Assembly: GCA_030697555.1 (NCBI GenBank)
Contig: JAUYPV010000133.1
Span: 1 to 61,666, forward strand
Direction: 5' to 3'
Length of the DNA: 61,666 bases
Source of the DNA: Hyphomonadaceae bacterium
Lineage (GTDB): Bacteria > Pseudomonadota > Alphaproteobacteria > Caulobacterales > Hyphomonadaceae
Below the pieces are notes generated by a model. The model saw only the letters and a program-made list of their open reading frames with translations. It did not search any database and was not told where the DNA came from. The translations under genes and the position numbers were made by a program. This document shows, one piece after another, positions 39,357 to 50,477 of the stretch (position 1 is its first letter; each line of letters opens with the position of its first letter).

Positions 39357-39392
39357 AAAAGCAACCGGCCGGACCCTTGAGGGCCCGGCCGG
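39357..39392 (-). terminator. Terminator of the copper/haem lipoprotein gene
   Basis: CCGGCCGGACCC (39365-39376) pairs with GGGCCCGGCCGG (39381-39392) with a single mismatch and a TTGA (TCAA on the minus strand) loop; on the minus strand the stem is followed by TTGCTTTT. It lies 29 bases after the stop of the gene that ends at 39421. Confidence 0.75.
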
Positions 39393-39420: not shown

Positions 39421-41406
39421 TTAGGTCGGGCTGCGCACTTGCGGATTGCGACCCTGTGCACGGGCCTGCTCGTCCATCTGCTTCATCGCAGCGCCGATCT
39501 CCTGGAAGGAGAGGCCGCCGGACTTGTCGGCGTCGATCTGCGGGAAGGCCTGCTTGAACTGCCCGTAGACCTCGCCAACCTCGTCCCCGCTGGTCCGCAG
39601 CTCAGCTTCCTGCAGTTCGCCGTCGCGGTTGTCGTCCGCCATCGTGACGATCAGGCTCTGCTCGAGCTGTTGCTGCAGGTCGTCGCGGCGCACTTTCGCC
39701 GTTTCATCCACCCAGCGGAATTGCACGCCGGTGAACAGCATCTCGTCGAACGACTGGTCGCCCCACGGAACCGTCTTGGTCGGGTCGGTGAGGGTGTCTT
39801 TCGCAAGCGTCTGGTTGTTGACCGAGTTGTCGTACCAGTAGTCGGCGACAAGTTTGGTGCCGGCCGGCAGGTCGATCAGGTCCTGGAAGATGTACTCACG
39901 CTGCCAGTTGAAGTCGTACTTCGGCATGTTGACCAGCAGCTTCTCGGTGCCGTCCGGCAGGTAGGCCGTAAGCTTCGAGGCATAGCCGCGATAGTGCGCG
40001 TGGATCTGCGTCGCGTAGACTTGCACCGCCGCCGGGAACTGCACATAGGCCGTTTCGTGCCAGCGGGCCTGGTTCGGCTGGATCTCGATCGACGGGTCGG
40101 CGATCACGATCTGACGTTTGACCAGCTCGGGCTCGGGCCCGAAGTAGAAGCCGATCTTCGAGTTGTCGACCGCTTCCTTGCCGAACGGCGTGTAGTGCAT
40201 CTGGAACGAGATCGCTCCGCCCGCCGGGATCCAGGTCGCCCAGTTTTCCGGCGCGAAGTTCGATTCCGATCCGACGGCATAGCCGCCCATCGAAACGTTC
40301 CAGTCGAAGCCGCGGCCGTTCGCCGGCACTTTCGGCATCCAGCCTGCGAGGATGTGGTGCACGCCCTGACGCTGTCCCGCCTTGAAGGTCGTGGCTTTCA
40401 GCCAGCGGCCTTCTTTCAGCGGGCTCGCGACGGCCGGCATCTGGTAGTCGACGATGCCCGCGGCCGGGATGGTGTAGGCCGGGATGTCGACCACAAGGTC
40501 CGGCTTGCCGAGCGGCCATTCGGCGCGCGCGGTGACGCCGACCACCAGCGGATCATCGCCTTCGCCACGCGGGGCGCCGGCTTCGATCCAATGGATCAGC
40601 GTCTTGGTCTCGGCTTCGGTCAGGTTCTCGTCATTCTGGAACTGGCCGACGTGACGGTCGACGTCATAGGGGGGCATGCGGTCGACGCGGACCGCTTCGC
40701 GGATCATGCCGCTGAAGCCTTTGACGGTCTCGTAGTTCGTCATCTGCCAGGTGCCGATGCCGCCGGGCTGGTGGCAGTCGACGCAACGCTTCATCAGGAT
40801 CGGCGCGATGTCGTTGGCGTAGGAGATCTTGGCGAACTCGGCCTTGTTGGCGCGATCGGCGAACTCGACCTTCGTGCCTTTGACAGCCGTCTGGGCTTTC
40901 GTCACCGGCGTGCCGGCGGCAATCTCGGTGAGGGCTGCTTCGAGGCCGTCGACCGAGCCGTGATACGCGACCTTCCAGGTCTTGGTGTCGACCGCGAAGG
41001 CTTCACCGGCCTTGGTGACGCCAAGCGAATCGCCGATGAGCTGGAACTCGTCGTCGAGCACCGGCAGCGTGAGGCCCTGCTCTTTGGCCTCGGCCGCGAT
41101 CGTCTCGCGCGTATCGGTCGGGCTGGAATTGATCATCTTGAAGACGATGTTCGGGTGCTTGGCGGCGAGCGCTTCGAGCGCTTTCGCAGCAGCACGCGAT
41201 CCTTCATCGCCGTTGACCTGGCTCACCAGCACGATCGCAGGCGTCTGCGTGTCGTACTTCAGCGAGTGGGCCATGCCGGTCTGGTCGACCAGCAGGAAAT
41301 TGTCGACTTGCGTACCGACCAGCTTCGCAGCCGGTTCGTTGGAGCAAGCCGCGATGCCGAGCGCGGAAGCGCTCGCCAGCAGGGCAATAGCCGCCAGCCT
41401 TTTCAT
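39421..41406 (-). CDS. Multidomain lipoprotein: thioredoxin-like + cytochrome c + type II copper monooxygenase-like + EF-hand
   Basis: 661 residues from ATG 41406. The signal ends in a lipobox (IAAC, C21). Residues 30-165 resemble a redoxin/SCO-like thioredoxin fold, but it has no cysteines. A haem site C208-V-D-C211-H212 follows in a short cytochrome c domain (about 195-280) with M244-P-P as a possible axial ligand. Residues 300-570 resemble the two-domain copper type II ascorbate-dependent monooxygenase fold (peptidylglycine or dopamine monooxygenases): H350-H351 (GVHHILAGW), H404 (QMHYTPFG), H469-x-H471 (IHAHYRGYA), and M556 (FDEMLF), matching the CuH and CuM ligand sets. Two EF-hand loops end it (DDNRDGELQEAE at 591, DADKSGGLSFQE at 625). 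Likely faces the periplasm; substrate unknown. Confidence 0.85.
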   Translation of the reverse strand: MKRLAAIALLASASALGIAACSNEPAAKLVGTQVDNFLLVDQTGMAHSLKYDTQTPAIVLVSQVNGDEGSRAAAKALEALAAKHPNIVFKMINSSPTDTRETIAAEAKEQGLTLPVLDDEFQLIGDSLGVTKAGEAFAVDTKTWKVAYHGSVDGLEAALTEIAAGTPVTKAQTAVKGTKVEFADRANKAEFAKISYANDIAPILMKRCVDCHQPGGIGTWQMTNYETVKGFSGMIREAVRVDRMPPYDVDRHVGQFQNDENLTEAETKTLIHWIEAGAPRGEGDDPLVVGVTARAEWPLGKPDLVVDIPAYTIPAAGIVDYQMPAVASPLKEGRWLKATTFKAGQRQGVHHILAGWMPKVPANGRGFDWNVSMGGYAVGSESNFAPENWATWIPAGGAISFQMHYTPFGKEAVDNSKIGFYFGPEPELVKRQIVIADPSIEIQPNQARWHETAYVQFPAAVQVYATQIHAHYRGYASKLTAYLPDGTEKLLVNMPKYDFNWQREYIFQDLIDLPAGTKLVADYWYDNSVNNQTLAKDTLTDPTKTVPWGDQSFDEMLFTGVQFRWVDETAKVRRDDLQQQLEQSLIVTMADDNRDGELQEAELRTSGDEVGEVYGQFKQAFPQIDADKSGGLSFQEIGAAMKQMDEQARAQGRNPQVRSPT

Positions 41407-41531: not shown

Positions 41532-42743
41532 TCAGGCAGCAACGCCAGCATGCGGCGATGTTGGGCGCATCGCCTTCACCTGCCGCCAAACCTCGACGCC
41601 GATGCCGATCGCCCAGAATAGGCCGACGATGGCGAGCGAATATCCGAACACAGCGTTGATGCTCCCCGCCAGCTCCGCAGCCCGCGTGCTTTCCTCGGTC
41701 GCCGCAGTCACCGAAACCAGCGGCCCCGACCGCCCCAGCACCCACAGCACGGCAATCCCGCCGACATGGCCGAGGATCGAAACAGCCGAACGCAGCCGGC
41801 TCCACGCAGGATGAACGATATCGGAGACGTGCACCGCCGCCATCAGCAGCGCCAGCGCCAGGATCGGCGTGTGCATCGACGCCCAGGCTTCCGCAAAGTG
41901 CAGCTCCATCGAATTGCCACGGCCCGGAATGTCGTTCGGGAAGTCCACGACCTTGATCCACCACAGGATGAAGATCGTATCGAAGGCGAGTGCGAACAGG
42001 GTGTCGAACAGCGGCCTGGGCTTGCGGATATGGTCCTGCGGCAGCGCCTTGGGATTCCAGCCCCGGGCGATACGGACATCTGTCCTAGTGCGCTCCATCA
42101 CGATGAAGACGACAGTGATCACGCCGAACATCCAGATCGCCGCCTCGATCGCCCCACCAATCCCGGTGATGACCATCGCCATGGCGCGCTCTGATTTCAG
42201 GGCCTTCACCGCCGTGATGACCATCACGAGCGCGAACACCAGTCCAACGCCCACGCGCTGCGCATCCCAGAACCAGGGATAGAGGTTGGGCCCGATCAGG
42301 TAGTCGCGCCCCGAATAGCGCGAGGCGACGACCACCGGATGCCCGAACTCCTTGAGGATCGCGGCGACATCATCGGCGCTGGCCGCATGGCCGAGCGCCT
42401 CTTCCTTCGCCTCGATCTTGCCCGCGATCCCGTCGCGCAGTTCGGCGGCGATGTCCTTCGCCTGCTTTTCGGGCAACCGGCGCCGTACGGCTGCAAGATA
42501 GCGTTCGACCAGGTCATGCATCGGCGCGCCCATCGCGGAATAGCTGGCGGCCACATCGGCCGGCGCGCCGAACTCGGCGAGGAGCGCCTCCATCTCGGCG
42601 TCCGTCGGCTCGCGCCCCAGCTTCGCCTCAAGCCCATCGACCTTGATCGACAGCACCTTGTAGATCTTCGCCGAGGTCTGAATCCGGCGCATGCCGGACA
42701 GGTTCTTCTCGACCTCTTTCACATAGCGGGTGACAGGGTTCAT
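41532..42743 (-). CDS. Membrane protein with HAAS-like cytoplasmic domains
   Basis: 403 residues from ATG 42743, overlapping the padR stop. The cytoplasmic N-terminal part has two similar helical units, each ending in a LGREPTDAEMEALLAEFGAPADVAASY-like pattern (second copy LGHAASADDVAAILKEFGHPVVVASRY), as in HAAS (HAAS-signalling) domains. About seven hydrophobic segments follow from residue 165. HAAS proteins are co-encoded with PadR regulators and are thought to sense signals at the membrane. The 125 bases to the next gene downstream (41406) make a separate transcript likely for that gene. Confidence 0.85.
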   Translation of the reverse strand: MNPVTRYVKEVEKNLSGMRRIQTSAKIYKVLSIKVDGLEAKLGREPTDAEMEALLAEFGAPADVAASYSAMGAPMHDLVERYLAAVRRRLPEKQAKDIAAELRDGIAGKIEAKEEALGHAASADDVAAILKEFGHPVVVASRYSGRDYLIGPNLYPWFWDAQRVGVGLVFALVMVITAVKALKSERAMAMVITGIGGAIEAAIWMFGVITVVFIVMERTRTDVRIARGWNPKALPQDHIRKPRPLFDTLFALAFDTIFILWWIKVVDFPNDIPGRGNSMELHFAEAWASMHTPILALALLMAAVHVSDIVHPAWSRLRSAVSILGHVGGIAVLWVLGRSGPLVSVTAATEESTRAAELAGSINAVFGYSLAIVGLFWAIGIGVEVWRQVKAMRPTSPHAGVAA

Positions 42744-43084
42744 CAGCGACCCTCCTTCAGGATGCCGTCGATCGCGCGGTTCATCGCGCGCCATGCTTCG
42801 GTGAGTTGTGAGAGCGCCGAGGCGCCATCAGCCGAGAGACGGTAGAACCGCTTCTGCCGCTTGGCGTCCTCGCGCCATTCCGACGTCAGCAGCCCCTGCG
42901 TCTCCAGCCGCCGCAGCATTGGATAGAGCGCGCCCTCGTCGATCTCGACGCCCTGCTCCGCCAGCTCCGCCCGCAGCGTGTAACCGTATTTCTCCGTCCG
43001 CAGCGCCCCCAACACCGCCAGGATCAACGCCCCCCGCCGTAGCTCCAGTCGCAAAGTCTCAATAATATCAGGGCTCAGTGGCAT
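42743..43084 (-). CDS. PadR-family transcriptional regulator
   Basis: 113 residues from ATG 43084 (MPLSPDIIETLRLELRRGALILAVLGALRTEKYGYTLRAEL). The wing and dimer motifs (EIDEGALYPMLRRLETQGLLTSEWREDAKRQKRFYRLSADGASAL) are typical of short PadR-s2 regulators. Coupled to the HAAS membrane protein. An inverted repeat 12 bases upstream of the ATG is the likely operator. Confidence 0.95.
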   Translation of the reverse strand: MPLSPDIIETLRLELRRGALILAVLGALRTEKYGYTLRAELAEQGVEIDEGALYPMLRRLETQGLLTSEWREDAKRQKRFYRLSADGASALSQLTEAWRAMNRAIDGILKEGR

Positions 43085-43095
43085 GTGTTCCACAT

Positions 43096-43112
43096 AGTGT
43101 ACGATATACACT
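43096..43112. promoter_or_regulatory. Candidate PadR operator
   Basis: AGTGTA-CGATA-TACACT is a perfect 6-bp inverted repeat with a 5-base centre, immediately upstream of the padR start and flanked by two CACATAG direct repeats (43091, 43121). Autoregulation through such sites is usual for PadR proteins. Confidence 0.5.
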
Positions 43113-43597
43113 GTATGCCACATAGGATGAGGAGTCAAGAGGCGCTGGCAACGTCGGCGGCTGCCCCTCCGTAGGAATTTCAGGGCCTACCCTGACCGCA
43201 ATCCAGCATATTTCGGCGCGCGGTCGCGACTATCTTCGCAGCAGACTCAAGCGACTAGAAAAAACTTGTCGCGAATTTGTCCCCACCCCTCCGGAGCCGG
43301 CGGATAATGCGCGCATGACGAAGTCATTTCATGCGCTCTCCGCCGCGATCGCACCCTCACGTCCACGACGGACGAGCGGAGCCGCCTTCCGGCCAGGGCC
43401 CAACGGATCGGCGCCCGGCGACGACGATTTTCGGAATCGGCCGTGGACGACGACGACGATTTTTTTGATTCCGGGCAAGAAACCGGAATCGGCGAGTGAC
43501 CGCTCACATAGACCTCAGCTCCGGAAGTCGTCCACCCGAGGTGGCGCCCGTCACCCAACTGGCCGATAACCTCCCCGAGATTCGCACGAGGCCTCCC
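43113..43597. other. Long intergenic stretch before pyk
   Basis: About 485 bases without a convincing gene. A GATAAT -10-like hexamer is at 43303-43308 but no -35 at the right distance is clear. The stretch from 43421 to 43495 carries repeated GACGACGA triplets and two copies of CGGAATCGG (43432, 43484), which give it low complexity. An 84-codon ATG reading frame at 43315 has no recognisable sequence. Nothing else seen. Confidence 0.5.
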
Positions 43598-49886: not shown

Positions 49887-50477
49887 ATGTCTGCCTCCTC
49901 CCCGAAGACCAAACTGAACGCCTCCATCTTCGCCCACGCCTCCTTCCTGGTGGTCGCCGCCATGCTTGCCATGCAGGCTGGCTGCGGCGGTCCGGTTTCA
50001 GCGGCGCCTGCCCCAGCCGCCGTCGCGGCGGCCAACGCCCAACCCTCGGTTTCGGCCGCGTCGATGATCGACGCCGGTCGCTACCTGGTGAAGATCGGCG
50101 GCTGTAATGACTGCCACACACCCGGCTATGTCGAGCAGCTGATGATGACCGGCAAAGAGATGCCGGAATCGGACTGGCTGATGGGCGGCGATGTCGGCTT
50201 CTCCGGCCAGTGGGGCGTCAGCTACCCGGCCAACCTGCGGCTGTCCTTCCAGAACATGACGGAAGAGCAGTTCCTCGAGATGGCGCATGCCGGCCAAGGC
50301 CGTCCGCCCATGCCGTGGCCGAGCCTAATGGCGATGAGCGACCAGGATCTCAAGGCGATCTACGCCTATATCCGCGCGCTCGGGCCCAAGGGCGAAGTGG
50401 CGCCTGCCGCGCTTTCGCCCGGCGTCGAGCCCGACCGTCCGCATATCCCCTTCGTTCCGCAGATGCCGAAGGGCTGA
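49887..50477 (+). CDS. Cytochrome c-type lipoprotein
   Basis: 196 residues. The signal ends in AGC (C33), a plausible lipobox. A haem site C73-N-D-C76-H77 follows with the axial methionine probably M142 in RPPMPWPSLM. The helix TEEQFLEMAHAGQG and the final helix SDQDLKAIYAYIRALG complete a class I cytochrome c. It may donate or accept electrons for a partner outside the window. The next gene shares its leader sequence (AGGAAAAACCT). Confidence 0.85.
   Translation: MSASSPKTKLNASIFAHASFLVVAAMLAMQAGCGGPVSAAPAPAAVAAANAQPSVSAASMIDAGRYLVKIGGCNDCHTPGYVEQLMMTGKEMPESDWLMGGDVGFSGQWGVSYPANLRLSFQNMTEEQFLEMAHAGQGRPPMPWPSLMAMSDQDLKAIYAYIRALGPKGEVAPAALSPGVEPDRPHIPFVPQMPKG

What the first reader, a model, noticed from the sequence alone, without database searches (positions are those of the whole stretch)
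39421..41406. One lipoprotein joins a cysteine-free thioredoxin fold, a cytochrome c, a PHM/DBM-type dicopper monooxygenase and EF hands
In one 661-residue chain I can place a haem motif CVDCH (208-212), HH (350-351), an isolated H (404), HxH (469/471) and M556, which correspond in order to the CuH (three His) and CuM (His, His, Met) ligands of peptidylglycine/dopamine monooxygenases. A haem domain in the same chain could feed electrons to the copper site, replacing ascorbate. The thioredoxin-like part has lost both catalytic cysteines. The arrangement suggests a self-contained, membrane-anchored, calcium-responsive oxygenase. Basis for the fold is motif reading only; whether this exact four-part fusion has been studied I do not know.
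Basis: partly seen in the sequence, partly recalled or inferred. Interest (0 to 1): 0.75.

Follow-up and report, generated by a model that had tools for sequence, protein, structure and literature searches.

The report
Haem-fused bacterial relative of dopamine hydroxylase
A bacterial exported protein joins a haem domain to a two-copper core related to the animal enzymes that make noradrenaline and peptide hormones, so it may carry its own electron supply; its host keeps eight versions of it.

Summary
The 661-aa chain reads lipobox, cysteine-free redoxin fold, cytochrome c (CVDCH), PHM/DBM-type dicopper core, two EF-hand loops. Foldseek ranks PHM and DBH first (3mll, E 2.2e-15). A family profile hits human DBH (7.2e-14) and PHM (about 3e-10) and lays all six proposed copper ligands on the known ones. 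In 105 distinct sequences no aligned ligand deviates. This genome holds 8 copies; two Caulobacteraceae MAGs hold 9 each. Simpler cytochrome c-PHM fusions exist, so haem plus copper is the core. The two redoxin cysteines are both present (11) or both absent (84), never single. In one paralogue group 11 of 21 members lie directly behind [2Fe-2S] and molybdopterin subunit genes. PHM's carboxylate-binding residues are not conserved. I read it as an exported, haem-fed copper hydroxylase of an unknown small substrate; activity, electron path and calcium dependence are inferred. Nine open-library searches listed no paper on such a fusion. New variant of a known kind.

The parts
39421..41406 (-). Coding sequence of the 661-aa redoxin / cytochrome c / PHM-type dicopper / EF-hand protein, stop codon included
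   Evidence: 18 relatives in genome contigs; 8 full-length copies in the same genome
41344..41406 (-). Signal peptide and lipobox IAAC, Cys21 (residues 1-21)
   Evidence: sequence; lipobox pattern scan
40882..41319 (-). Redoxin-like domain, residues about 30-175, without cysteines
   Evidence: profile match to 3u5r (SMc02350) 1.3e-18; Foldseek 3u5r 1.2e-10; cysteine pair absent
40537..40839 (-). Cytochrome c domain, residues about 190-290
   Evidence: invariant CxxCH and MPP; weak Pfam Haem_bd and Cytochrom_C; relatives match Cytochrome_CBB3 under its cut-off
40771..40785 (-). Haem attachment motif CVDCH, residues 208-212
   Evidence: 100 of 100 sequences with letters there, 5 of 105 without letters
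40675..40677 (-). Met244, proposed distal haem ligand (RMPP)
   Evidence: 105 of 105; role inferred from class I cytochromes c
39706..40509 (-). PHM/DBM-type dicopper core, residues about 300-567
   Evidence: Foldseek PHM 2.2e-15, DBH 3.9e-14; profile to DBH 7.2e-14 and PHM about 3e-10
40354..40359 (-). His350-His351, CuH ligands (DBH His262/His263)
   Evidence: alignment; DBH ligands as named in PMC4846438 (passage); 105 of 105
40195..40197 (-). His404, third CuH ligand (DBH His333)
   Evidence: 105 of 105
39994..40002 (-). His469-x-His471, CuM ligands (DBH His412/His414)
   Evidence: 104 of 104 with letters there
39739..39741 (-). Met556, third CuM ligand (DBH Met487), after invariant Glu555
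   Evidence: 104 of 104 with letters there
39601..39636 (-). EF-hand loop 1, DDNRDGELQEAE (residues 591-602)
   Evidence: pattern scan
39499..39534 (-). EF-hand loop 2, DADKSGGLSFQE (residues 625-636)
   Evidence: Pfam EF-hand_1 6.6e-5, under its cut-off
39365..39392 (-). Terminator-like hairpin (12 pairs, 11 G-C) between this gene and the ATP synthase delta gene
   Evidence: 3 such sites found against 2.4 expected, so weak evidence on its own
41532..43138 (-). Upstream same-strand pair: PadR regulator (42743-43138) and HAAS-domain protein (41532-42794), possibly co-transcribed
   Evidence: Pfam; both found near 7 of the 10 orthologues compared

Best explanation
It is an exported (in this copy lipid-anchored) copper monooxygenase of the PHM/DBM superfamily with a covalently attached haem donor. 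Proposed cycle: a periplasmic dehydrogenase or the respiratory chain reduces the cytochrome c domain; the haem passes single electrons to CuH (His350, His351, His404) and on to CuM (His469, His471, Met556); CuM binds O2 and hydroxylates an activated C-H bond of a small molecule. The redoxin fold has lost its cysteine pair and serves as a structural or docking part; the EF hands stabilise the C-terminal tail with calcium. Shown here by computation: domain order, fold, identity and conservation of the metal ligands, paralogue expansion, joint absence of the redoxin cysteines. Inferred: monooxygenase activity, haem-to-copper electron flow, roles of the redoxin fold and the EF hands, and the class of substrate.
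For: Predicted structure pLDDT 84.9, pTM 0.83; the first 30 Foldseek PDB hits are all PHM or DBH chains, 3mll with 294 alignment columns (gaps included) for a 304-residue chain. Profile A3 hits DBH 7.2e-14 and PHM about 3e-10 with HH, H, HxH and M all aligned to the known ligands (ligand names from a passage of PMC4846438). Ligands and haem motif do not deviate in any aligned sequence of 105, this one included. A haem c motif precedes the copper core in every member read whose N-terminal part was at hand, including Acidobacteria, Gemmataceae and a distant proteobacterium; in the acidobacterial and proteobacterial ones no redoxin or EF hand is needed. In one paralogue group 11 of 21 members sit directly behind [2Fe-2S] and molybdopterin subunit genes, same strand, gaps 159-309 bp (Pfam run on one of the 11 pairs), while within four genes on each side no other neighbour cluster recurs in more than 2 of those 11; such two-subunit molybdenum hydroxylases without an FAD subunit often use a cytochrome c as acceptor (recalled).
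Against: The window copy is not beside the molybdenum enzyme: its recurrent neighbours are ATP synthase genes, a PadR regulator and a HAAS protein. The 11 copies with the molybdenum genes are not a clade apart from the other 10 of that group, and what holds for them need not hold for the window copy. The residues that bind the peptide carboxylate in PHM are not conserved, so a substrate cannot be transferred. PHM-like folds could also serve as copper-binding or oxygen-sensing proteins.
Confidence: 0.62

Rival explanations
1. It works as a dicopper hydroxylase but electrons come from outside (quinol, small reductant or a separate protein); the fused cytochrome is a redox sensor or gate, or carries electrons away.
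For: PHM and DBH work with a diffusible reductant and no haem in the chain (general knowledge). DBH carries an N-terminal DOMON domain with the fold of a haem-binding cytochrome domain but without haem ligands (PMC4846438 passages).
Against: CxxCH and a distal Met are kept in every sequence with letters there (100 of 100 and 105 of 105) and in the distant cytochrome c-PHM proteins read; a dispensable sensor would be expected to drop out in some copies.
Confidence: 0.2
2. It is a copper-storage, copper-sensing or oxygen-sensing exported protein that kept the PHM fold and ligands without catalysis.
For: No recurrent catabolic neighbour at the window copy; many diverged paralogues per genome.
Against: Besides the ligands, a Trp-Gln pair, an Asp and the Glu before the copper Met are invariant and Asn-Ser nearly so in a 12-sequence alignment over several phyla; both copper sites are intact in every aligned copy.
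Confidence: 0.1
3. A peptidylglycine alpha-hydroxylating enzyme that amidates bacterial peptides.
For: Same fold and copper ligands as PHM.
Against: The position of PHM Arg240 (two residues before HxH) is Gln467 here, and the positions of PHM Asn316 and Tyr318 after the copper Met are Phe558 and Gly560 (read from the alignments; PHM numbering and roles recalled). I did not search for a partner lyase (PAL).
Confidence: 0.05
4. In the ancestor the redoxin part is a working thiol enzyme, and the fusion protects the copper site from peroxide or loads copper; the window copy is a derived form.
For: Relatives in Gemmataceae, Pseudomonadales and some alphaproteobacterial copies keep both cysteines; the two go together (11 both, 84 neither, 0 single of 95 readable).
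Against: The window copy and most copies lack both, so this cannot be its own mechanism, yet the domain is kept.
Confidence: 0.15

Closest known systems
Dopamine beta-hydroxylase (DBH; PDB 4zel)
   Same: Dicopper core with HH, H (CuH) and HxH, M (CuM); best profile match (7.2e-14); DBH also has an extra N-terminal domain, with a cytochrome-type fold (DOMON)
   Different: DBH's DOMON domain has no haem ligands (PMC4846438 passages); here a c-type haem motif is present, with redoxin and EF-hand parts, and this chain has no cysteines other than the lipobox and haem ones
Peptidylglycine alpha-hydroxylating monooxygenase (PHM; PDB 1phm, 3mll)
   Same: Fold (Foldseek 2.2e-15) and all six copper ligands
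   Different: Carboxylate-binding residues not conserved; 13-17% identity in the structural alignments listed; fused haem domain
Cytochrome c-PHM fusions of an acidobacterial genome (L202, L207, L210, L213; L216 with a long repeat-rich tail that reads as TPR by eye) and of a distant proteobacterium (L187)
   Same: Haem c motif followed by the same dicopper core with the same ligands
   Different: No redoxin domain, no EF hands
Gemmataceae redoxin-cytochrome c-PHM proteins (L016, L017; second copies L205, L206)
   Same: Same order of redoxin, haem, dicopper core; L016/L017 also carry one EF-hand loop
   Different: Redoxin cysteines retained; 28% identity to the window protein for L016/L017; L205/L206 lack the EF tail
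Sinorhizobium SMc02350-type thioredoxin-like proteins (PDB 3u5r, 2ywi)
   Same: Fold and profile match (1.3e-18 for 3u5r)
   Different: Both keep the cysteine of NxCP in the alignment; the window protein has none

Membership tests
PHM/DBM copper type II monooxygenase superfamily | Core fold of the two PHM copper domains | tested here: met
   Foldseek top 30 all PHM/DBH chains; TM-score normalised to target 0.65 for 3mll
PHM/DBM copper type II monooxygenase superfamily | Six copper ligands: HH...H and HxH...M | tested here: met
   Aligned to DBH and PHM ligands; no deviating residue in 105 sequences
PHM/DBM copper type II monooxygenase superfamily | Score above Pfam cut-offs (Cu2_monooxygen and Cu2_monoox_C) | tested here: inconclusive
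   Cu2_monoox_C 21.4 bits against 23 for the protein but 24.1 in the genome search; Cu2_monooxygen no hit; distant relative L187 scores 53.6 (over) and 29.9 against 30 (just under)
PHM/DBM copper type II monooxygenase superfamily | Two copper sites facing each other across a cleft (about 11 A apart in open PHM, recalled) | not testable with these tools
   Model coordinates not available; no metal in the model
PHM/DBM copper type II monooxygenase superfamily | O2- and reductant-dependent hydroxylation | not testable with these tools
   No assay
Peptidylglycine alpha-hydroxylating monooxygenase proper | Arg240, Asn316, Tyr318 binding the glycine carboxylate (numbering and roles recalled) | tested here: not met
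   Gln467, Phe558, Gly560 at these places (alignments)
Cytochrome c, class I | CxxCH and distal Met | tested here: met
   CxxCH 100 of 100 with letters, Met244 105 of 105; Pfam scores under cut-off
AhpC/TSA or redoxin enzymes | Thioredoxin-like fold | tested here: met
AhpC/TSA or redoxin enzymes | Redox-active cysteine(s) | tested here: not met
   None in this copy; both present in 11 and both absent in 84 of 95 readable sequences, 10 of 105 dropped for missing letters
EF-hand calcium-binding proteins | Twelve-residue acidic loop, paired | tested here: met
   Two loops here; at least one loop in 102 of 105 tails; Pfam EF-hand scores under cut-off
EF-hand calcium-binding proteins | Calcium binding | not testable with these tools
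   No assay

The most novel reading that the evidence does not exclude
Bacteria hold a haem-wired branch of the PHM/DBM superfamily in which the reductant is built in, multiplied into eight or nine specialised copies per genome, each matched to a different periplasmic dehydrogenase (molybdenum or PQQ type) that oxidises the hydroxylated product and returns the electrons to the same haem, so that hydroxylation and oxidation of a nutrient form a closed redox loop outside the cytoplasm.
Probability: 0.15. Interest if true: 0.85.

Novelty: new variant of a known kind. Interest (0 to 1): 0.6.

Why it matters
PHM and DBH are textbook animal enzymes; a 2020 review of metalloproteins lists both only in the eukaryote column of its copper table (PMC7435645 Table 3, passage seen). 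How electrons enter the two copper sites, and why DBH carries a haem-fold domain without haem, are open points. A single-chain bacterial version with a coloured, titratable haem would let electron entry be watched directly, and the paralogue expansion points to a set of unassigned bacterial hydroxylases, several of which score under the Pfam cut-offs.

Tried and rejected
Chance motif reading: rejected by fold search, profile match and conservation.

NCBIfam XopAW (3.9e-6, 26.8 bits against a cut-off of 120, residues 572-648): the only NCBIfam hit; it covers the EF-hand tail and I take it as EF-hand likeness, not kinship.

Peptide amidation: disfavoured, see rivals.

A general partner family: the unannotated 'GVWT' proteins and DUF6152 looked like partners because they sit with the PHM-type gene in the Pseudomonadales genome G647. 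There the two GVWT genes found (E up to 1e-10) and the only DUF6152 match over the cut-off lie directly downstream of the single PHM-type gene. But in the window's own genome the link is at chance level (within 2 kb: GVWT 1 of 8 PHM genes, p 0.33; DUF6152 0 of 8), and mixed elsewhere (G648: GVWT 0 of 9, DUF6152 2 of 9, p 0.003; G649: GVWT 3 of 9, p 0.006; DUF6152 1 of 9, p 0.065; within 5 kb: G000 GVWT 1 of 8, p 0.5; G648 DUF6152 3 of 9, p 0.0003; G649 GVWT 4 of 9, p 0.004). These twelve tests are uncorrected, assume uniform placement, use match edges merged by hand, and 5 of the 18 G648/G649 gene positions were estimated from the PHM part. Kept as a lead only.

Plasmid origin: no match in PLSDB. 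Broad search of the phylum with the whole protein: 35 of 398 genomes match at E 0.001, but apart from the window's genome and one genome of the same order the matches are short, mostly over the cytochrome part, and one (G293) covers haem and copper core.

Cysteine count corrected: one search counted ten sequences without readable letters at the first cysteine site as cysteine-free; one search drops them (95 of 105 counted). The tree count (5 parsimony changes, or 10 losses if only losses are allowed, rooted on the Gemmataceae proteins) was made before that correction and includes those ten.

Literature: nine searches and one for DUF6152 in the open PMC library. I judged from the listings, which were partial for (25 of 184; 12 of 1,775; 25 of 26), and saw passages of four papers. 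No listed paper was on a bacterial cytochrome c-PHM protein. Subscription journals are mostly not held, so this is not proof of absence.

Full report
Observation. The reading frame lies on the minus strand of 39421-41406 and encodes 661 residues. All motifs are at the stated residues. Single-sequence Pfam scores are weak and below curated cut-offs, so the claim needed family evidence.

Family evidence. One scan of genome contigs gave 18 loci, from alphaproteobacterial MAGs at up to 66% identity to Gemmataceae at 28% and a Bryobacteraceae protein (31%) without the redoxin part. The window's own genome holds eight full-length copies plus one redoxin-only match; the eight are 37-75% identical pairwise. 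Of 200 genomes of the order 17 match, the window's included (not every candidate was scored). Of 105 genomes of the family 27 match, the window's included; the 15 genus members listed there all match, with 3-11 matches each, some partial or redoxin-only (58 of the 78 non-matching genomes are not listed by name, so I cannot say that no genus member lacks it). Two MAGs titled Caulobacteraceae carry nine each. With the copper-core profile at E 1e-8 only 3 of 299 genomes drawn over the phylum match, the window's included, so the family is patchy.

Copper core. The model has pLDDT 84.9 and pTM 0.83. Foldseek puts PHM and DBH chains in the first 30 places. The profile of 29 copper cores hits only DBH at 4.6e-5; the broader 12-sequence profile hits DBH at 7.2e-14 and PHM at about 3e-10, and its alignments lay HH, H, HxH and M on the ligands of both enzymes. 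DBH ligand names are from passages of PMC4846438. The comparison set is 105 distinct sequences, the window's included: of 114 blast hits, 111 span more than 350 residues, 105 remain after removing identical cores, and 3 partial hits (L152, L018, L172) were left out. The six ligands are kept in 105 or 104 of them, the one exception being a broken G190 copy that ends before HxH; the haem motif is kept in 100, and five lack letters there because the called gene or the contig starts later.

Haem. CxxCH and a distal RMPP methionine do not vary where letters exist. Acidobacterial genome G646 has five copper-core matches; in four the haem motif is followed directly by the copper core, and the fifth continues into a long repeat-rich tail. 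A distant proteobacterium (L187) also has just these two parts. The haem-copper pair is thus the core and the rest is added.

Redoxin. The domain matches the SMc02350 type. In 95 readable sequences the NxCP cysteine and a second cysteine just before the haem domain are both present in 11 and both absent in 84, never one alone (Fisher p 1.3e-14, uncorrected for relatedness). On the tree, rooted on Gemmataceae, the root state is 'present' with five parsimony changes (made before ten unreadable sequences were dropped). The pair therefore behaves as a unit, most likely a disulfide (inference), and was lost repeatedly while the fold was kept.

EF hands. Two loops matching my pattern are present in all eight copies of this genome, though several depart from the canonical glycine; at least one loop in 102 of 105 tails. 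Of the three without, two are truncated and one (Pseudomonadales L014) truly ends after the copper core.

Context. The window copy lies behind PadR and HAAS genes and ahead of the ATP synthase genes, with a hairpin between it and the delta subunit gene; this order recurs in the genus and tells little of function. In paralogue group OG0, 11 of 21 members follow [2Fe-2S] and molybdopterin subunit genes (Pfam on one pair), and no other neighbour cluster recurs in more than 2 of those 11. The 11 do not form a clade apart from the other 10, and three of the other 10 lie near a contig end, so their flanks are incomplete. One copy in the same genome (C87) is followed by a PQQ dehydrogenase-type gene and preceded by a GVWT gene. 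Both enzyme types commonly give electrons to c-type cytochromes (recalled). This is the main, indirect, support for the haem as electron entry.

Mechanism. I propose dehydrogenase or respiratory chain to haem c, to CuH, to CuM-O2, to substrate C-H. PHM's carboxylate-binding residues are not conserved, so peptide amidation is unlikely. The substrate is unknown; a small, uncharged or aromatic compound fits a DBH-like site best, by analogy only.

Novelty. PMC7435645 Table 3 lists PHM and DBM only in its eukaryote column (passage). My searches listed no paper on this fusion (partial listings). Bacterial members probably sit in protein databases already (recalled). I rate it a new variant of a known kind.

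Noticed in passing
L109:9695-10732, L242:5540-7521, G000: A protein family of about 340 residues (motifs PDLxGxWTN and YEYACHEGNY), with no Pfam match in the five members tested and no NCBIfam match in three; a search of the window's genome lists 52 matching pieces, roughly 40 genes.
   Followed up: partly
L242:5069-9176: In the Pseudomonadales genome G647 a PHM-type gene, two GVWT genes and a DUF6152 gene lie in tight same-strand order; they are the only GVWT genes found there (E up to 1e-10) and the only DUF6152 match over the cut-off.
   Followed up: partly
L225-L231 (G649 contig C2, G648 contig C5): Islands with four copies of the haem-copper gene within about 54 kb (G649) and 32 kb (G648); in G648 five DUF6152 genes lie between two of them.
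   Followed up: partly
L071:9765-11309 and downstream: In G190 the gene at the window's syntenic place (beside ATP synthase and pyruvate kinase) is split into two adjacent frames, residues 8-465 and 465-651: a broken copy or a sequencing error.
   Followed up: no
L172:1307-1969: A stand-alone redoxin protein with a lipobox-like start, related to the N-terminal domain, beside two long genes that look by eye like TonB-dependent receptors, in the window's genome; redoxin-only matches occur in other members of the genus.
   Followed up: no
window 49887-50477 (+): A separate small cytochrome c-like protein with a CNDCH motif (Pfam Cytochrome_CBB3 2.1e-4, under its cut-off), about 8.5 kb from the gene.
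   Followed up: no
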